NCBI GenBank assembly: GCA_024711005.1
Contig: JANJTQ010000335.1
Location: 1 to 34,166 of the forward strand
Origin: Opitutaceae bacterium
GTDB taxonomy: Bacteria > Verrucomicrobiota > Verrucomicrobiia > Opitutales > Opitutaceae
DNA: 34,166 nt
Reading direction: 5' to 3'
Below are positions 4,997 through 34,166 of this stretch, piece after piece. The position numbers and the translations under genes are program-made. Positions within the stretch are counted from its first letter, which is position 1, and the number at the start of each line of letters is the position of its first letter. The notes under the pieces are model-generated. The model made no database searches, was not told the origin of the DNA, and was given only the letters and a program-made list of their open reading frames with translations.

Positions 4997-7771
4997 TCAA
5001 CGGCCCGGAGCTTGGGTTGATTCGGCCACGGCGGCGATATGGGTTTCCAAAGCGCGAGCCAGGTGACCGACATGAGGCTCGGTCATGAGGGTTTCGTGCT
5101 GACCGGGCATGATCTTCACCGTGACGCCTCCGCGAGCGAGGTCCGTCCAGCCGCACTGATGGTCGAACGAACAGAAGAGCGGATGTCCGCGGGTGCGGAA
5201 GAGCGTGACATGTCCGTCGTACGGGCCGGTTTTGTGTTCCGCGACCGCGCGGGTGTGTTCGCGCCACAGTCGTTTCTCGGAGTCGGAGAGACCGGCCACG
5301 TCGACTCGCGCATCGGCGTCGATTCCCTCGTGGGTGGGCGCGAGCCGGAAGCAGGCGGCGAGTTTTCGCTTTAACGTGCGGAACTTCCATTTGACGAAAT
5401 CGCGGCGGGTATGCGGCTCCCATTTGAGGAAACGCCCGAACCAGAAGCAGAAGTTCCACAGGAATCGGACGAGATGGACGGGGGTCCAGTAGAAGCGATC
5501 GTAACTGGAGTTTGACGGCCAGGAGTTGAACAACGCGAGCAACGCGACCGTCTCCCCCTGCCGGCGAAGTATCCGGGCCATTTCATAGGCGATGTCGCCG
5601 CCGAAGCAGTATCCGCCAATGCAATACGGACCTACGGGCCGGAAGCGCCGCAGTTCCTTCACATAACGTTCCGCCATGGCGGCGATGGATGGCGAAGAGG
5701 CGTTTGTTTCGAGTTCGGGGGCCTTGAAGACGTGCACCGGCTGGTGGGATCCGAGATGGCGGGAAAGATTCGCATAACCCCACAGCATGCCTCCGCCGAT
5801 TCCGTGGACGAGGAACAGGGGCGGACGATCGCCCCGTGTTTGCACGCTGATGAGCAGGGTGGTGTCGCCATCGTCGCCGGCTCCCGCGGGACGATCCGCG
5901 AGTGCGGCGAGGGTGGCGACGGTCGGGGCCTTGAGGATCGTGTCGTGCGCGAACTTTCGCCCGATTCTTTTTTCGACCTCGGAGAGCATGGCGACGCCGA
6001 TCAACGAGTCCCCGCCGATATCGAAAAAGTTGTCGTTGATGCCGACTTTTTCCTGGCCGAGCAACCGACTCCATATCTCGCAGATGATTTCCTCCGACCG
6101 CGTGCGTGGCGGTTGATAGCCCGGGCCGTTGTCGGCCGCGCGAATGCGGGACGGGGCGGGCAGGGCCTTCGCATCGATCTTGCCATTGGGCGAGAGCGGG
6201 AGCCGTTCGAGGAAGACGACCGAGGAGGGCACCATGTAGTCGGGCAGGCGTGTCCGGGAGTAGGCGCGGAGTTCGCGCTCCGAAGGCGGCGCGGTCGCGT
6301 CCGGATCGGGCACGACGTAGGCGACCAGTTTTTTTCCGCCCTCCGGCTCGGTCCATAGGCGGACAACCGCCTCGCTTACGGCGGGAGCGGAAACCAGCAC
6401 CGATTCAATCTCTCCCAGTTCGACGCGAAAGCCGCGAATCTTGATCTGTTGATCGGCGCGTCCGAGAAACTCGAGACAACCGTCGGACCGGTAGCGGCAG
6501 ACGTCACCCGTTCGATAAAGACGCGCGCCGGGGATTTCCGAAAACGGATCGGGGATAAAGCGCTCGGCGGTGAGTTCGGGGCGGTTGAGATAACCGCGGG
6601 CGACGCCGGCGCCGCCGATGAACAACTCGCCGGGTTCACCGAGCGGGACGGGCTCCAGACTCTCGCTCAACAAGTAGGTCGTGTAGTTGGCGATGGGCCG
6701 TCCGATGGTGGCGGGTTCGTCCGGATCACGCAGGGCGCAAGTCGCGACGACGGTGGTCTCGGTGGGGCCGTATTGATCGTAGACGCGTTTGATGTGGGGC
6801 AGCTTGTAGAGCCCCTGAACGACGTCGTCGGGCACGGCCTCGCCTCCCAGGTTGACGGTTTCCAGTGACGTCGGCAGGCCGCCGATCCGCAGCAGCTGAC
6901 GGATCGCCGAGGGCACGGTATCCATTAAATGGATCTCGTTGGCGGCCGGCAGATCGGGCACCGCGAGGGCGTTCTCGGCGATGATGACCTTTCCGCCGAA
7001 GCTGAGCGGCACGAATAGTTCAAGGACCGACGCGTCGAAGCAGATGGTCGCGGTCGCGACCACTCCGCTCAACTCGCGCGGACTGTAAAGGCCGCCGCCC
7101 CAATGGACGAAGGCCACGGCGTTGCGATGTTCGAGACAGACCCCCTTGGGCCGTCCGGTGGAGCCGGACGTGTAGATCACGTAGGCCAGATTTGCGGGAG
7201 TGGCGGAGGGAGGCGGATTGTTGTCGGGGGCCCGGGAAATATGTTCGTCGGCATCGACGCACACGATGGTCGGAGCGGGACCGCTCGCCGCCAGGTCGCG
7301 CAAGGCGCCGGCCAGCGAAGCGTGGGTGAGCACCGTGTGGACCTTGGCGTCTTCGAGGATAAACGAAAGCCGGTTGGACGGATACAGCGGGTCCAACGGC
7401 ACGTAGGCTCCGCCCGATTTGAGCACGCCGAGGAGCGCGCAAACCATATCGACCGTGCGCGGCAGGAAGATACCCACCAAGGTCTCCGGACGAACGCCGT
7501 TTTTTCGAAGACGGTGGGCCACCCGGTTCGCGCGTCGGTTGAGTTCGCGATAAGTCAGGCGCTCGTGACCCACGACCAACGCCTCCGCGTCGGGCGTGGC
7601 CGCGGCTTGCATCTCAAAGCGATTATGCAGGCAAGTATTTAGAGGGTAGGGTGTTTCGGTCCGATTCCATTCAACGAGCACTTGATCACGATCTTTGGGC
7701 GAGAGTGTGGGGTTGGGTTCTGAAATAAGCGTGCCTTCGGACGGTGAGGAGGTCTGCGAGTTCGTTGCCAT
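4997..7771 (-). CDS. NRPS termination protein: A-PCP-thioesterase, no C domain
   Basis: A 924-residue nonribosomal peptide synthetase protein. Adenylation domain about 25-540: YTSGSTGRPKG at 200, FDASVLELF with Asp246, YDQYGPTETT, YRTGDVCR, IKIRGFRVELGEIE, and PLSPNGKID with the A10 Lys531. Carrier domain about 555-630 with phosphopantetheine Ser589 (IGGDSL). Type I thioesterase about 648-915 with nucleophile motif GYCFGG (Cys722 in place of Ser), Asn749 where the triad Asp often sits (LLALFNSW), and His892 (GQHETL). The protein begins at the C-to-A linker (VLVEWNRTE), so a condensation domain is truly absent. By hand alignment to GrsA the specificity residues read DALDNGQVVK, the same as in the first protein of the cluster. 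It is separated from the PKS gene by 149 bp, so it may have its own promoter. Last step and product release of the cluster. Confidence 0.95.
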   Translation of the reverse strand: MATNSQTSSPSEGTLISEPNPTLSPKDRDQVLVEWNRTETPYPLNTCLHNRFEMQAAATPDAEALVVGHERLTYRELNRRANRVAHRLRKNGVRPETLVGIFLPRTVDMVCALLGVLKSGGAYVPLDPLYPSNRLSFILEDAKVHTVLTHASLAGALRDLAASGPAPTIVCVDADEHISRAPDNNPPPSATPANLAYVIYTSGSTGRPKGVCLEHRNAVAFVHWGGGLYSPRELSGVVATATICFDASVLELFVPLSFGGKVIIAENALAVPDLPAANEIHLMDTVPSAIRQLLRIGGLPTSLETVNLGGEAVPDDVVQGLYKLPHIKRVYDQYGPTETTVVATCALRDPDEPATIGRPIANYTTYLLSESLEPVPLGEPGELFIGGAGVARGYLNRPELTAERFIPDPFSEIPGARLYRTGDVCRYRSDGCLEFLGRADQQIKIRGFRVELGEIESVLVSAPAVSEAVVRLWTEPEGGKKLVAYVVPDPDATAPPSERELRAYSRTRLPDYMVPSSVVFLERLPLSPNGKIDAKALPAPSRIRAADNGPGYQPPRTRSEEIICEIWSRLLGQEKVGINDNFFDIGGDSLIGVAMLSEVEKRIGRKFAHDTILKAPTVATLAALADRPAGAGDDGDTTLLISVQTRGDRPPLFLVHGIGGGMLWGYANLSRHLGSHQPVHVFKAPELETNASSPSIAAMAERYVKELRRFRPVGPYCIGGYCFGGDIAYEMARILRRQGETVALLALFNSWPSNSSYDRFYWTPVHLVRFLWNFCFWFGRFLKWEPHTRRDFVKWKFRTLKRKLAACFRLAPTHEGIDADARVDVAGLSDSEKRLWREHTRAVAEHKTGPYDGHVTLFRTRGHPLFCSFDHQCGWTDLARGGVTVKIMPGQHETLMTEPHVGHLARALETHIAAVAESTQAPGR

Positions 7772-7920: not shown

Positions 7921-10900
7921 TCAGCTGACATCGGGCGGTTCTCCGTTCGGGCGATTCCGGATGGGCGGGAGATCCGCGGAAGCTGACGACGGCGGGTCGT
8001 CGCCGGATTGGATATCCGCCAATAACGCCTGTTCCACCAATGGGGCGAGGCCGGCAATGGTGGGTGTTTTGAACACGGTCCGTATGGGCAATTCGATTTG
8101 CAGATCGTTGCGCAGGCGCGCGACAAAACGCAGTGCGAGCAATGAATGCCCGCCGAGTTCGAAGAAGTCGTCGTGCACCCCGAACTGCTTTTGGTCGAGA
8201 ATATCGCTCCACATGCCGGCGAGTGTTTCCTCGGTGAGCGTGCGTGGAGGCACTCTGAGCGGGCCGGTCGATGTGGCGGTTGGAACCGGAAGGGGCAGGG
8301 CTTTGCGGTCGATCTTGCCGTTCGGCGTGAGAGGGAGCCGTTCCAGAATCATGAACTGTTCGGGGATCATCGACTGCGGAAGCCGGGCGTCGAGATGCTC
8401 GCGGATGTCGGTGACGAAGGCGGATTCGGACGGCTCTTCCGCGGTGTTTCGGCGGACAAGATAGGCGACGATCCGTTTTTGTCCGGGCACGTCTTCGCGT
8501 GCGACGACGGCGCAGTCGCCGACGGAGAGGTGGGAGCGCAGCACGGTTTCAATCTCCGCGAGTTCGATGCGCAAACCGCGGATTTTGACCTGGTGGTCGG
8601 CGCGGCCGAGGTACTCGAGGTTGCCATCGGGACGGTAGCGGCAGAGGTCGCCGGTGCGGTAGAGACGGTCGCGTGGATCGTTGGCGAACGGGTTCGCGAT
8701 AAACTTTTTCGCGGTGAGTTCCGGCTGGTTGAGGTATCCCCGGGCGACGCCGGCGCCGCCGATGAAGAGTTCGCCCACGGTGCCGACGGGTACGGGCTCC
8801 CGATGTTCGTCGAGGAGGTAGAGCCGGGTGTTGGCGATGGGCCGGCCGATGGTGGCGGGCTTGTTCGGATCGCGGAGAGCGATGGTCGAATACGTGGTGG
8901 TTTCGGTCGGACCGTAGAGATCCCAGACCTTTTGAATGTGGGGAAGCGCGTGGAGTTGCCGGACGACCTCCACCGACAACGGTTCGCCGGCGAGCGTGAC
9001 TGTGGTTACCGAAGGAGGAATGCCCCGCATGCGAAGGACCTCGGCGATGATCGACGGCACGGACACGATGAGCCGGACCTCATGGGCCGCGGGCAGGGAA
9101 GGCAGGTCGAGGGCGTTGCCCGCGAGGATGATTTTGCCGCCGTGTGCGAGGGTGACGAAGAGTTCGAAGACCGACAGGTCGAAGCAGATGGAGGTGGACG
9201 CGAGGACCCCGTCCAACTGCTTCGCGTCGAAGACCACGCCGGCCCATTGGGCGAAGGCGACGGCGCTGCGGTGTTCGAGCGCGACACCCTTGGGTCGTCC
9301 GGTGGAGCCGGACGTGTAGATCACATACGCGAGGTGTTCGGGGCGGGTGACGGTCGGGAGATTCGACGGATCCGCCGCGGCGATCGGCCGATCGGTATCG
9401 ACGCACACGATATGGGGAGTCTGGGTGAGCGACGCGCTGAAGGCGCGAAGCGTGCCGGCCAGTTTTTCCTGCGTCAGAACGGTGTGCGCCCGCGAATCCT
9501 GGAGCATGTAGGCGATGCGATCGGCGGGATAATTCGGATCCATCGGCACATAGGCGCCGCCGGCCTTGAGAACGCCGAGCATGGCGCAGACCATGTCGGC
9601 GGAGCGTTCGGTGAAGATGCCGACCAGGCTCTCCGGACCGACGCCAAGGGCCCGCAAACGCCGCGCCACACGATTGGCCCGGCGGTTGAGTCCCGCGTAA
9701 GTCAGGCGCTCCCGGCCGACCACCAGTGCGGTGGCGTCGGGCCGCTCCGCGACCTGTGCCTCGAACAGCTCGTGCAGACACACCGGAGGATAGGCCATCG
9801 CGGTGTTGTTCCAATCCGTGAGGACCTGTCGCCGCGTCGCCGTGTCGAGCAAGGGCAACGTCGAAAGGGATGTTTCGGGTCGGGCGACGACGCCTTCGAG
9901 CAGCGTACGGAAATGCCCGAGCCAGCGCGTGATCGTTTCCGGGGAGAACAGATCGCGGTTGTAGTTTACATCGACGATGAGGCCGTCGCCGGACTCGCGC
10001 ACGCCGAACAGCAGGTCGAAGTTGACGAAGCTCTTCGGGTTTGGCGTCTCGGTGCACTGAAGACCGTCGAAGGGCAGGTCGCCGGGAGGCACGAGCGTGA
10101 GCACCGCATTGATCAACGGAGGACGCCCCTGCTCGCGAGTGAGCGCCAACTTTTCCAGCAACTTGCCGTAGGTGTAGTTGTCGTGGTCGGTCGCGACCTG
10201 CGTCAGCTCCTTGATCTCCGCGGCAAAACGCGTGAAGGGCATGTCGTCTTCGCCGGTGGCATAGATGGGAAGAAGATTGACGCAATGTCCGACCACCCGG
10301 TCCGCGCCGGGCTGGGTCTGGCCCGCGCTGCAGATCGCGATGACGCTCTTCTTTTGTCCGCTCAGACGTTGCAACAACACGTGGAGTGCGGAGAGCAAAA
10401 CGACGAACAAGGTGGCACCCTGTTTCGCGCCGACCTCGCGCAAGGCCTGCACGAGATCGGAGTTCACGGAAATCTCGGCGCCGGCACCGTGGTTTTCGAC
10501 GTCGGCGGTCCTCGGGAAATCAGTCGGCAGTTGCAGAGGAGGCGGCAGCTCGGCGAAACGATGCAGCCAGTAGGCTTCGGCCGTGGCGTAGGCGGCTCCG
10601 GCGCGAGCGGTTTCCTGACGACGGGCGAATTCGCCGAAGGGTAATGGCGCGGGCAGTTCGCAGGCGCGGGCTTGGACGCGGGCCGAATAAAGCCGTCCCA
10701 ATTCTTCCAGCACCACGCCCCAGGACCAGCCGTCACAGACGAGGTGATGCGCCCCCATCAGGAGCACGTGTTCGTTGGCGTCGATCCGGAAAAGCCGGGC
10801 GCGCACCAACGGGCCTCGGACGAGATCGAAGACGTTGCTCATTTCCGCGGAGATGGCCGCGGCGAGTTGTTCGCGGCGAGTCGTCTCGGGTTGGGAGGTG

Positions 10901-13900
10901 AGGTCGAGCAAAGGGATGTCCAGTTCCGGCGCGGGCGCGGCGCGTTGTCCGCTTCCATCGGCCGCGAACGTCAGTCGCAGTCCCTCGTGACGGTCGACCA
11001 CCTGGCGCAATGCATCGCACAACGCGTCCACGTTCAGCGGACCCCGGAAGGTGATCGTGGACGAATCGTTATAGGCGCAGGACATCTCGGGGCTCATTTG
11101 GCAGGCGAGCCAGATTTCCTGTTGTTGATCGGTCAGCGGAAACGATTCGGCCGGAGCTTGAGCGACGTGGTCGGATGCGACGACCGATTCGCGTTGGGGT
11201 GGGGCCGTCTCCTCGCCGGGCAGGACTCGATCGAGATGGTCCGTGAGGGCGTCGATCGTGGTCACCTCGTCGAGGAGCTGGCGGAAGGTGATGGCCGCCC
11301 CGAAGCGGGTCTGGATCTGCTGGCGGGCTTGGGTGAGAAAGAGTGAATCGAAGCCGAGTTCGAGGAATGACCGAGACCGGTCTCCGGCGGACAGATTCAT
11401 ACCGGATAAGGCGTGAAACAACGCGAGCAACTCGGTGGCGAGCCGCTCGCGGCGGGAAGGTTCCGCCTGCGGCGTGATTGCCAACATGGGCGGCGTGGCC
11501 GTATCCGCGGTCGTTGGCTGAGCGGAGACGGACGAGGTGAGGACGAAGAAACCCGGGTTGCTGCCGCCGTGGAAAAACGTATCCGCGGAAGAGACACGCG
11601 GTGCGTCGATGAAGTGGCGCTGTCGTTCGAACGGGTAGGTCGGCAGCGAAACGCGCCGGCGGTTTTCATACGCGTGGAAGCCGTTCCAGTCCACGGATAC
11701 GCCGGCGAGCCAGAGCTTGCCGAGCGCCGCGAGGATTGCGGCGGATTCCGGCTCCTTGGATGTGCCGAGGGAGCAGACGACCGCCTGCGACTCGTGCCGG
11801 GCGGGATGCTGGCGGGCGAGCGAGCCGAGTGTCTGACCCGGTCCGATCTCCAAGAGTACCCGTTGAGGATCGTTGAGCAGGTGTTCGAGGCCGGCGGCGA
11901 AGCGGACGGGTTGGCGGAGGTGGTTCGCCCAAGACTCCGGACTGGTTGCCTCCTCGTCTTCGATCCAACGCGCGGCCACGTTGGAAACATAGGGAATCCG
12001 CGGCGCCTGCATCGGGATCGTGCGGAGGATTTCGGTGAACGGCTCGATCGCCGGCTCCATCATGTGGGAATGAAACGCGTGCGAAGTAAGCAGGCGGACG
12101 GACGACCGACCTGAGTCCTGCAGGCGCCGTTCAAGGTCGTCGATCCGGGTGTTCGGACCGGCGACGACGCACAGGTTGGGTGCGTTGGCGGCGGCGAGAC
12201 ACAGGTCGTCGTCAAGCAACGGGATCACCTCCGCCTCGGGCAGGCGCACTGCGAGCATCGCGCCCTCCGGGCATTCCTGCACGAGCCGTCCGCGTTCGGC
12301 CACGAGACGAAGGGCGTCTTCAAGGGTGAATACGCCGCCGAGGCAGGCGGCGACGTATTCGCCGACGCTATGGCCGATCATCCCGGCGGGCCGCACGCCC
12401 CACGACATCCAGAGCCGGGCGAGTGCGTATTCCACCGCGAACAACGCGGGTTGCGTGAAACGCGTCTGAGTCAACTTCTCCCCGGCGTCCGCGGCCTCGG
12501 CCTCGGAGGGATGCAGCAAGGTGCGCAGATCGAGTCCGAGGTGCGGTTGTAGAATCTCGGCGCAGCGGTCGAGTTCCGTGCGGAAAACCGGTTCGCTTTC
12601 GTAAAGGCCGGCGCCCATGCCGACGTACTGAGAGCCTTGTCCTGGAAACATGAATACGACGGGGGTTCCGGTAGCGGTGACGGATCCGTCGAACACCCCG
12701 CGGGCATCGGGCTTTTCGAGAAGACCGACCGCCTCGGCGGAATCGCGGCACAGGACGACCCGGCGCGAAGGGAACTCGCGTCGCCCGGTTTGCAGGGTGA
12801 AGGCGACGTCGGCGAAGTTTACGCCGCTGGTGTTTTTCAGGTGATCCCGCAGGCGGATCGAGGCGCGGTCGAGCGCGGTTTCGTCGCGGGCGGAGAGCAG
12901 GAGCAATTGCCACGGGCGGGAGCGGCCGGAGGGAGGCCTCGGAGGCGCCTCCTCAAGAATGGCATGGGCGTTGGTGCCACCGACGCCGAACGAGCTGACG
13001 GCGGCGCGAAGCGGTCCGTCCCGACGTTCCCACCGGGCGAGGCGGGTGTTGACGAAGAACGGGGTGTTTTCGAGATCCAGCTTCGGGTTCGGTTTGTTGA
13101 AGTGCAGACTCGGCGGGATTTCCCGATGATGCAGCGAGAGGGCGGTTTTTATGAGGCCGGTGACACCGGCGGCCACGTCGAGGTGGCCGATGTTGGTTTT
13201 GACTGAGCCGAGCGCACAGAACTGTTTTTGGTCGGTGCCGGCGCGGAACGCTTCGGCGAGGGCGGACACCTCCACCGGATCGCCGAGAGCGGTGCCGGTG
13301 CCATGCGTCTCGACGTAGCTGATGGTCTCCGGGGAAACGCCGGCGAGCGCCTGTGCGAGCTGGACGACCTCGATCTGACCTTCGACGCCGGGAGCGGTGT
13401 AGCTGACCTTGTCGGAGCCGTCGTTGTTGATGGCACTGCCTTTGATGACGGCGTAGATCTGGTCGCCGGATGCGAGGGCGTCGTCGAGTCGCTTCAACAC
13501 GACGAGACCGAGTCCGCTGCCGAAAATCGTGCCGTCGGCGGCGGCGTCGAACGCGCGGCAATGTCCGTCGGTGGAGTCGATTCCGCCCTCTTGGTAAACG
13601 TAGCCCTTGGTTTGAGGAAAGATGATCGAGGCGCCGCCCGCCAAGGCCGCGTCGGACTGGTGCATGAGCAGGCTTTGGCAAGCCATGTTGACCGCGACGA
13701 GAGAGGTCGAGCAGGCGGTCTGCACCGTGACGGCGGGGCCGCGCAGGTTGAGTTTGAAAGCGGCGCGGGTGGCGAGGAAGTCCTTCTCGTTGCCGAGCAT
13801 CGTCTGGAAAAAGCCGGCTTTGTTGGCATCGAGAAGGTCTCGGATGAACGCGGCGCTGGTGCAGAGATTCGCGAGGAGGTAGGTGTTGCGGTTGAGCCCG

Positions 13901-14276
13901 GCAAAAAGGCCGATGGGGCCGTCGAATCGTTCGGGATCGCAGCCGGCGTCTTCAAGCGCCTCCCAAGCGCATTCCAAGAACACCCGCTGCTGGGGATCCA
14001 TGTGCGCGGCGTCCACCGGCGTGATGCCGAAGAAGCTCGCGTCGAAGAGGTCGGCATCCGCGAGCACCGGACGGGCTTTGACGTAGCACGGGTCTTTCAG
14101 CTGGTCGGGGTCCACACCCGCCGCAACCAGTTCCTCGTTGGTGAAAAAAGTGATGGATTCGACGCCGTTGCGCAGGTTGTTCCAAAACGCGTTGATGTCG
14201 TTGGCGCCGGGGAAACGGCCGGCCATGCCGACGATCGCGATGCCTTGGGTGGAGAACGGGTTCGGGGCGGTGTTCA

Positions 14277-14280
<4 letters not shown>
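7921..14280 (-). CDS. Hybrid PKS-NRPS: KS-AT-ACP-C-A-PCP
   Basis: A 2119-residue two-module protein. Ketosynthase about 12-440 with Cys190 (TACSTS), His326 (HGTGT) and His366 (NIGH). Acyltransferase about 540-840 with Ser638 (GHSVGE) and HAFH at 734-737, the signature of malonyl-CoA specificity. ACP with Ser979 (LGFDSL). Condensation domain about 1045-1480 with an intact HHLVCDG motif (His1178-His1179, Asp1183). Adenylation domain about 1500-2010 and PCP with Ser2046 (LGGHSL). No KR, DH, ER or methyltransferase domain is present, so the keto group formed should survive. Hand-read specificity residues of the A domain are DLFVTALTYK, similar to small aliphatic (Ala-like) codes as I recall them, low certainty. 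The start overlaps the stop of the preceding A-PCP gene by ATGA, so the two are translationally coupled. It extends the first amino acid by malonate, then adds a second amino acid. Confidence 0.96.
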
Positions 14281-16256
<1,976 letters not shown>

Positions 16257-18370: not shown

Positions 18371-19942
18371 CTATCGTTTTTCGGCGACGGCCCGGCGGGC
18401 GGCCTCGGCATCCGGGCCGGTGGTGGCGATTTGCTCCAAAGGCGATTCCGCCGGCCCGGCAATGACTTCGCCGGCGGGTTTGAATCGTGAGCCGTGGCAG
18501 GGACAATCCCAGGTGTGTTCGGCGTCGTTCCAGTCCACGATGCAGCCCAAGTGCGGGCAAACGGGCGAGCAGAGGGTGAAATCGCCGTGTTCGTCGCGGA
18601 AGGCCGCGACCTTTTTACCCTCGATGCGCAGGACCTTGCCCGAGCCGGGCGAGATCGATTCCAAGGGCCCGCTTTCGCCCCGGCTCAACCAGTCGCGGAC
18701 AAGATGGTACGGGTAGTCCTTGTTTTCCTTTAAGTAACTCCACGTGCCGCCGAGCCACTTGCGGCGATGGACGTCGAACAGATGGTTCCACCGATTGTCG
18801 CGACCGAAGTCCGCGTCCACCGCCATCATCGCGGTCAACGTGCCGAACGTCATGCCGTTTCCCGAGAACCCGGTGCCGGTAAACTGGTTCCTCGCGGTTT
18901 CGCCAATGAAGGGGAGCCCGTCGTTGGTCTCGATCACCTGTCCCGACCAGCGGTGATCGATCTCGATCTGCGGGACGATGCGGCGGAAACGCTCCTCCAA
19001 CCGTCCAAACGCCGCGGCGGTGTCGTGTTCCTGGCCTGTCTTATGATCCTCGCCGCCGAAGATTGCGTAGGAAAAGTCGCGGTGTTGTTCGACCCGCAGG
19101 TAATGGTAGGGATCGAGCATATCCCAATACAGGGCATCGGGAATCACTCCACGCGGCACACGTCCGCCAATCGCGTAACTGGTATAGAGCGCCAGCTTGG
19201 TTTGAAACAGAAGGGCGTTCAGCGTGCGGGTGGTTCCTTGCAGCGGCGTGTGGGTGGCCAGTACCAGACGATTGCCGCGAATCCGAAAGCCGCCCGCCCG
19301 GACGCCGTGAGGATTGTCGATGATCTCCCCGACTTCCGTGTCTTCAAACACGTGACTGCCGCCGCCCGGTATTTTGGGCAGGAGGGCGGCGAGATACTTA
19401 AGCGGATGAAACCGGGCCTGGCCGGGAAACCTCACGCCCGGCGCGCCGATGAACGGAATGACATCCTGGTATTCGGCGGAGATTTCCAACTGTCGCGCGG
19501 CGTCGATCTCGCGTCGCAATTCCTCGATCGCGCCATAACCGGCATAGCCGTTTTCGCCGGCGGGGGCGTGGAGAAAACCCGGAACGCGTTGGAATCCGCA
19601 ATCGATGCCCTCATCGCGGACGAGTGCGGCGATCTGTCCGATCGCCGCGGCGCCGGCATCCCACACCGCGCGCGCGGCGTCCTTGCCGAACAGGTCGATC
19701 AACTCGTGGAGCCGCAGGTCGGTGACGGCGGTCAGGTGGGCGGTCGTGTGGCCGGTATCGATGTGGGCGCAGCGCGTCCGCTCGATCAGGGCCACCCTGC
19801 GACCGGCGCGTTTGAGGAGGAATGCGGCGGTGATCCCGGTGATGCCTCCGCCCACCACGATGGTATCCACCTGTAAATCGCGGTCAGGCTTGGGAAAGCG
19901 GGGCGGAGACGCGGAATCGATCCAATATGATGACGTATTCAT
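18371..19942 (-). CDS. FAD-dependent oxidoreductase with C-terminal Rieske domain
   Basis: A 523-residue fusion. Residues about 25-400 are a DAO/glycine-oxidase-type FAD domain with the dinucleotide motif [15 protein letters not shown] and a C-terminal FAD-contact segment ([19 protein letters not shown]). Residues about 420-520 are a Rieske [2Fe-2S] domain with ligands Cys462-x-His464 (CPHLGC) and Cys480/His483 (CPCHGSRF). The architecture matches the Bacillus YhfW type of protein, whose substrate is not established as far as I know. Electrons taken from an amine or similar substrate by FAD could pass to the Rieske cluster. A 30-residue membrane protein is encoded 13 bp upstream on the same strand, so the pair is probably one operon. 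Confidence 0.92.

Positions 19943-32420: not shown

Positions 32421-34166
<1,746 letters not shown>

What the first reader, a model, noticed from the sequence alone, without database searches (positions are those of the whole stretch)
6540..7120. Near-identical A-domain DNA in the first and last NRPS genes: recent duplication or gene conversion
Positions 6540-6637 and 15013-15110 are identical over 98 bases. By hand count only about 16 differences occur over the roughly 325 bases from 6540, while the flanks (N-terminal lead, PCP, region after A8) differ far more. The ten specificity positions are the same in both (DALDNGQVVK by hand alignment). The patchy pattern points to gene conversion that keeps the two modules on the same substrate.
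Basis: seen in the sequence. Interest (0 to 1): 0.6.

Follow-up and report, generated by a model that had tools for sequence, protein, structure and literature searches.

The report
Gene conversion between two NRPS domains
Two enzyme modules in one bacterial peptide-making gene cluster share a stretch of about 300 bases that was copied between them long after the genes themselves diverged, a known way for such genes to evolve; the copying was not needed to keep their shared predicted substrate.

Summary
The genes are A-PCP (14277-16256, "A1") and A-PCP-TE (4997-7771, "A3"), either side of a KS-AT-PCP-C-A-PCP gene. Silent divergence A1-A3 is high on both sides of the tract (dS 1.14, 0.96) but 0.20 in A1 residues 305-415; relatives from two other genomes differ there by dS 0.55-0.68. 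The silent-identity run was reached by 0 of 2000 shuffles and is the only one of 37 within-genome pairs below p=0.01. Local homogenisation by recombination is well supported, but it is not very recent and its direction is unresolved. The proposed purpose is not supported: the code DALDNGQVVK is the same in relatives without the tract, and at least 5 of its 10 positions lie outside the tract. An older layer exists: the two A domains form one clade while their carrier domains belong to separate lineages, implying an exchange near the A-PCP linker. New member of a known kind (microcystin mcyB1/mcyC precedent, PMC2174460).

The parts
6540..6865 (-). homogenised tract in the A domain of the A-PCP-TE gene (A3); motifs A5-A6, within Acore; sharp 3' edge at 6540, 5' edge between about 6838 and 6866
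   Evidence: 16 differences in 6540-6864 against its copy; dS 0.20 over A1 residues 305-415 against 1.14 and 0.96 in the flanks; likelihood edges: start A1 residue 313-319, end 412-451
15013..15338 (-). the same tract in the A domain of the A-PCP gene (A1)
   Evidence: offset 8473
6540..6637 (-). 98-base perfectly identical core in A3 (motif A6, GELFIGGAGVARGYLN)
15013..15110 (-). 98-base perfectly identical core in A1
4997..7771 (-). A-PCP-TE gene (924 aa, P0001), last NRPS gene in transcription order; no C domain; TE motif GYCFGG
7921..14280 (-). KS-AT-PCP-C-A-PCP gene (2119 aa, P0002), middle gene; its A domain (A2) reads DLFVTALTYK
14277..16256 (-). A-PCP gene (659 aa, P0003), first NRPS gene; no C domain; its PCP is of a lineage separate from that of A3

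Best explanation
The adenylation domains of the first (A-PCP) and last (A-PCP-TE) NRPS genes are old paralogues. After this lineage split from those of the two closest relatives found, a tract of about 300-330 bp coding for the later part of Acore (from about the residue-299 region through motifs A5 and A6, ending before A7) was copied between the two genes by homologous recombination within the cell, most likely non-reciprocally (gene conversion). Shown: localised silent identity, absent from relatives. Inferred: RecA-type recombination, non-reciprocity, and that it happened within this genome. Direction is unresolved. The event sits on an older one, in which the whole A domain came to be shared by two genes whose carrier (and TE) domains belong to different lineages, with a junction near the A-PCP linker (about A1 residues 540-550). 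Substrate identity is kept by selection on the protein and is older than the conversion.
For: Exact 98 bp and 16 differences in 325. A1-A3 dS 1.14 upstream, 0.20 tract, 0.96 downstream; in the tract, A1 or A3 against G001_A1 or G004_A 0.55-0.68, and G001_A1 against G004_A 0.62. Silent-codon run: 104 of 118 identical codons inside, 159 of 298 outside, 0 of 2000 shuffles. Two-edge likelihood gain 24.3 log units over no tract. 1 of 37 within-genome A-domain pairs below p=0.01. Tract tree joins A1 and A3 with short branches (0.024, 0.042), support 96/92. Older layer: in the PCP A1 joins G001_A1 at 100/100 and A1+A3 is rejected (AU 3e-7), whereas the A domains of A1, A3, G001_A1 and G004_A form a 100/100 clade.
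Against: Trees of the A-domain flanks do not reject A1+A3 as sisters (AU 0.476 upstream, 0.654 downstream), so inside the A domain the case rests on branch length and silent divergence, not on conflicting topology. The tract region is slower at silent sites in other pairs too (dS among A1, A3, G001_A1 and G004_A 0.55-0.68 there, against 1.03-1.21 upstream), and the best runs of A1-G001_A1 and A3-G001_A1 fall in the same A5 region (p 0.0185 and 0.0325), so part of the contrast is regional. In the tract, A1+G001_A1 and A3+G001_A1 just escape rejection (AU 0.056, 0.057). Only two close relatives were found, and the pairing of A3 with G004 in the PCP has modest support (70/67). No reads were available to exclude an assembly error.
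Confidence: 0.85

Rival explanations
1. No conversion: strong codon-level or RNA-level constraint around motifs A5-A6 keeps the DNA alike in both copies.
For: Silent change is slower in this stretch in other pairs too (dS 0.55-0.68 against 1.03-1.21 upstream); A5 and A6 are highly conserved motifs.
Against: Relatives of both genes differ at silent sites in the very same stretch about three times as much as A1 from A3; A2 against either copy shows no significant run (0.092 and 0.086; 0.121 and 0.126).
Confidence: 0.05
2. Recent duplication of the whole A domain, with fast divergence of everything but the tract.
For: The A domains do share ancestry along their whole length.
Against: dS of 0.96-1.14 in the flanks, about as high as between genes of different genomes, is not explained by fast protein change; in windows between residues 201 and 280 the protein is 93-97% identical although third positions agree only about half of the time.
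Confidence: 0.02
3. Both genes took the tract independently from a third donor (another locus or another organism).
For: Exchange of A-domain segments between clusters and species is reported (PMC8097286 and PMC9205934, passages read). One of the C77 domains shows a weak run with A3 (31 of 43 codons, p 0.043 uncorrected).
Against: Of the four other A domains tested in this genome (A2 and three of contig C77) none has a run near 104 of 118 with A1 or A3; the reading needs two events at the same place. Other AMP-binding proteins of the genome were not tested.
Confidence: 0.05
4. Assembly artefact: short-read collapse or a chimera between the two near-identical stretches.
For: The genome is in 351 contigs; no reads to check.
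Against: The tract is not identical (16 differences in 325 bp), which collapse would not leave; each gene's carrier domain and place match a relative (A1 PCP with G001_A1 in the same gene order, A3 PCP-TE with G004).
Confidence: 0.03

Closest known systems
mcyB1/mcyC adenylation-domain homogenisation in microcystin synthetase (Fewer et al. 2007, PMC2174460; passages read, parts of the abstract among them)
   Same: Two A domains of one hybrid NRPS-PKS cluster overwritten by one another within a strain, with low divergence in the A domains and high divergence in neighbouring domains.
   Different: There the exchange is linked to variant products and shown in several genera; here it is one genome, a tract of about 300-330 bp, and no predicted change of substrate.
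Intragenomic A-domain recombination in wollamide/desotamide synthetases (PMC9205934; passages) and the survey of Acore exchanges (PMC8097286; passages)
   Same: The recombined stretch lies inside Acore and leaves Asub and the carrier alone.
   Different: Those exchanges change the amino acid taken; this one joins domains with the same code. The older layer here, with a junction near the Asub-PCP linker, departs from the reported trend to keep the Asub-T interface intact.
A-PCP-TE genes of related genomes (G002, G012, G004)
   Same: A3 has the same A-PCP-TE order and the GYCFGG thioesterase motif; the G004 gene is 74% identical over A3 residues 4-917.
   Different: In the window the A-PCP-TE gene lies beside a KS-AT-PCP-C-A-PCP gene and an A-PCP gene; in G002 and G012 a search of the genome found no C domain.

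Membership tests
Intragenomic gene conversion between NRPS A domains (mcyB1/mcyC kind) | localised excess of identity at silent sites between paralogues in one genome | tested here: met
   dS 0.20 against 1.14 and 0.96; 0 of 2000 shuffles
Intragenomic gene conversion between NRPS A domains (mcyB1/mcyC kind) | paralogues closer to each other than to relatives in other genomes in the tract | tested here: met
   A1-A3 dS 0.20; to G001_A1 and G004_A 0.55-0.68; tract tree 96/92
Intragenomic gene conversion between NRPS A domains (mcyB1/mcyC kind) | different tree topology in tract and in flanks of the A domain | tested here: inconclusive
   flank trees unresolved; A1+A3 not rejected (AU 0.476, 0.654); only the PCP rejects it (AU 3e-7)
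Intragenomic gene conversion between NRPS A domains (mcyB1/mcyC kind) | non-reciprocal transfer with known donor | tested here: inconclusive
   both copies are about equally far from G001_A1 (0.65, 0.64) and from G004_A (0.55, 0.68) in the tract
   same code DALDNGQVVK in G001_A1 and G004_A, which lack the tract
Functional NRPS A-PCP and A-PCP-TE | intact A3, A5, A7, A8, A10 motifs and PCP GG[DH]S | tested here: met
   motif strings of own_A1, own_A2 and own_A3; which motifs matter is recalled
Functional NRPS A-PCP and A-PCP-TE | amino acid activated | not testable with these tools
   no substrate predictor on hand; the code string was not found in any paper of the library

The most novel reading that the evidence does not exclude
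Beyond an ordinary conversion tract, this cluster may be an assembly line in which the same A domain was installed, without its C domain, at both ends: at the entrance on a KS-facing carrier and at the exit on a TE-facing carrier, with exchange near the A-PCP linker. Release would then be by an autonomous A-PCP-TE unit with a cysteine thioesterase that either uses its own aminoacyl-carrier as the acceptor (the TE, not a C domain, making the last bond) or makes a separate product. Conversion would keep homogenising the two copies.
Probability: 0.12. Interest if true: 0.6.

Novelty: new member of a known kind. Interest (0 to 1): 0.3.

Why it matters
It gives one more clean case of within-cluster homogenisation of adenylation domains, in a genome that groups with Opitutaceae (Verrucomicrobiota), and shows that identical specificity codes need not mean conversion: the code here is older than the converted tract. 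The older layer, with A domains shared and carriers of separate lineages, may interest those who engineer NRPSs by exchange at the A-PCP linker.

Tried and rejected
Direction of transfer: compared each copy's tract with G001_A1 and G004_A; both copies are about equally far, so no donor is named. A second, younger event for the exact 98 bp: 1 of about 25 silent sites changed there against 14 of about 61 in the rest of the tract, Fisher p 0.057, on a stretch chosen after the fact; not claimed. Conversion involving A2: best runs not significant (A1-A2 0.092, A2-A3 0.086; 0.121 and 0.126). Duplication of the whole gene: rejected by silent divergence. Substrate prediction: no predictor on hand; no library paper holds the code string (searched DALDNGQVVK, DALDNGQVV, DALDNG).

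Limits of the tests: the run test printed a header naming 10000 shuffles; 2000 were run. 8 of its 66 pairs fell below 0.05 without correction, the lowest after A1-A3 being G012-G008 at 0.006. In one search the G001_A1 row still held an out-of-frame end past an assembly gap; (the dS table), 42 and 47 used the corrected row; the pair list used only the first piece of G001_A1. One search left the G001_A3 row out of the PCP tree (11 of 12 rows kept), because that gene has no recognisable PCP. The thioesterases counted were found with the window's own TE as the query, in 14 stretches I had chosen, so the set is not a fair sample. Entry 2 of the notebook gives 9 TEs; the count is 12.

Full report
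Observation. The window holds three NRPS/PKS genes on the minus strand, in transcription order: A-PCP (14277-16256, A1), KS-AT-PCP-C-A-PCP (7921-14280, its A domain called A2) and A-PCP-TE (4997-7771, A3). By nucleotides the 3' edge (low coordinate) is sharp at 6540 and the 5' edge lies near 6838-6866. A two-edge likelihood on silent codons puts the start at A1 residue 313-319 and the end at 412-451 (within 2 log units; best 314-423), with a gain of 24.3 log units over no tract. In the protein the tract covers motifs A5 (338-342) and A6 (385-400) and by nucleotides stops before A7 (423-427), inside Acore.

More than chance. Codons with the same residue in A1 and A3 were scored as identical or not: 104 of 118 identical inside the best run, 159 of 298 outside; 0 of 2000 shuffles reached the score. 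Among 66 pairs of 12 A domains, 8 were below 0.05 uncorrected, and the lowest after A1-A3 was 0.006. Among 37 pairs of A domains within one genome (30 domains from 12 genomes or records, of which 8 have two or more), 1 was below 0.01 and 3 below 0.05. NG86 dS for A1-A3 is 1.14 upstream (residues 46-304), 0.20 in the tract (305-415) and 0.96 downstream (416-540).

Relatives. Among 252 genomes of the family, 27 (this one included) have a match to A3 at E up to 1e-150, but only two others have a match above 70% identity: G004, an A-PCP-TE gene (74%), and G001, whose first gene matches A3 at 71% over residues 2-422 and lies in the same order before a KS-AT-PCP-C-A-PCP gene. In the tract, A1 and A3 differ from G001_A1 and G004_A by dS 0.55-0.68, and those two differ from each other by 0.62. 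The homogenisation therefore came after these lineages split. It is not very recent: G002 and G012, two other genomes of the genus, differ by 0.24 in the same stretch. Against my reading: the stretch is slow at silent sites in these other pairs too (0.55-0.68 against 1.03-1.21 upstream), flank trees do not reject A1+A3 as sisters (AU 0.476 and 0.654), and in the tract A1+G001_A1 just escapes rejection (AU 0.056), so the case within the A domain rests on branch length and silent sites.

Function of the conversion. The ten code letters, placed by motif anchors that I recall from the GrsA numbering, are DALDNGQVVK in A1, A3, G001_A1 and G004_A. The latter two lack the tract, so the code is older than it. 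Four of the ten positions (250, 251, 254, 288) lie between residues 201 and 310, where the protein is 83-97% identical by window while third positions agree 47-63% of the time in windows that do not reach the tract: selection on the protein, not copying, keeps them. No library paper holds the code, and I name no amino acid.

Older layer. In the PCP (residues 541-640) A1 joins G001_A1 at 100/100; A1+A3 is rejected at AU 3e-7; A3 falls with G004 at 70/67 (11 rows). In wider trees of 28 A domains and their 28 carriers, the four A domains form a 100/100 clade. Its place among other A domains is unresolved (13.6/60); by BLAST the nearest outsiders are the A domains of KS-AT-PCP-C-A-PCP genes (56-59% identity). 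In the carrier tree A1 and G001_A1 stand together (99.9/100) and fall only weakly (42.7/42) with other carriers, one of them that of the first gene of C77; A3 and G004 fall among TE-facing carriers with the G002/G012/G008 group at 98.5/100. Protein identity of A1 to A3 falls from 15/20 to 6/20 between residues 530-549 and 550-569; A3-G004 also dips there (8/20) and recovers to 16-17/20, while A1-A3 does not recover. An exchange near the A-PCP linker is the simplest reading; this is inference, and it departs from the reported trend that the Asub-T interface is kept (PMC8097286, passages).

Setting. A second cluster in the same genome (contig C77) has C-A-PCP, KS-AT-PCP-C-A-PCP and C-A-PCP-TE genes, and G035, G189 and G107 have a KS-AT-PCP-C-A-PCP gene followed by C-A-PCP-TE. 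The window's cluster lacks the C domain in both outer genes. The search found four C domains in the genome: three in C77 and one in the window's middle gene, so no free-standing C domain was found that could serve A3 (the assembly is 96.6% complete in 351 contigs). G002 and G012 have an A-PCP-TE gene and no C domain was found in either (G002 is listed at 99% complete in 3 contigs, G012 at 93% in 320), so the A-PCP-TE type can probably work alone. All 12 TE domains mapped carry GYCFGG, with cysteine in place of the usual serine; that some NRPS thioesterases use cysteine I know from recall and from a search listing (listing only).

Known kind. Overwriting of A domains within one cluster was described for mcyB1 and mcyC (PMC2174460, listing and passages), intragenomic Acore exchange in wollamide synthetases (PMC9205934, passages), and gene conversion in mcyA2 (PMC3640908, passages). 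This is a new case of that kind.

Noticed in passing
L027 minus strand, reverse-complement offsets 12076-14074 (G001:C68): The third gene of the related G001 cluster is an A-domain-like ORF of 666 aa with the P-loop (YTPGAID), the A10 lysine and the PCP serine lost, and no TE was mapped in the stretch: apparently a dead A domain at the place of A3.
   Followed up: partly
window 4997-7771; L022, L025, L028, L029, L031, L080, L081, L082, L083, L085: The 12 thioesterase domains mapped in these stretches (found with the window's TE as query) all carry GYCFGG, a cysteine where type I NRPS thioesterases usually have serine.
   Followed up: partly
L028:10145-12967 (G002): A stand-alone A-PCP-TE gene overlapping an ABC transporter gene and followed by a GNAT acetyltransferase, in a genome in which no C domain was found.
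   Followed up: partly
L021:8562-9914: An erythromycin-esterase-family gene directly upstream of the A-PCP-TE gene of the Rariglobus record.
   Followed up: no
L082, L083, L085, gene before the KS-AT gene: The A domain there is matched in two pieces some 400 aa apart, as if split by an insert; its nature was not determined.
   Followed up: no
window 18371-19942: A FAD-dependent (DAO) oxidoreductase fused to a Rieske domain lies upstream of the cluster on the same strand, past two response-regulator genes.
   Followed up: no
window 32955-34100: Exact direct repeats of 26-38 bases (33504/34056, 33469/34021, 33128/33404, 32955/34059, 32955/33507) near the window's end.
   Followed up: no
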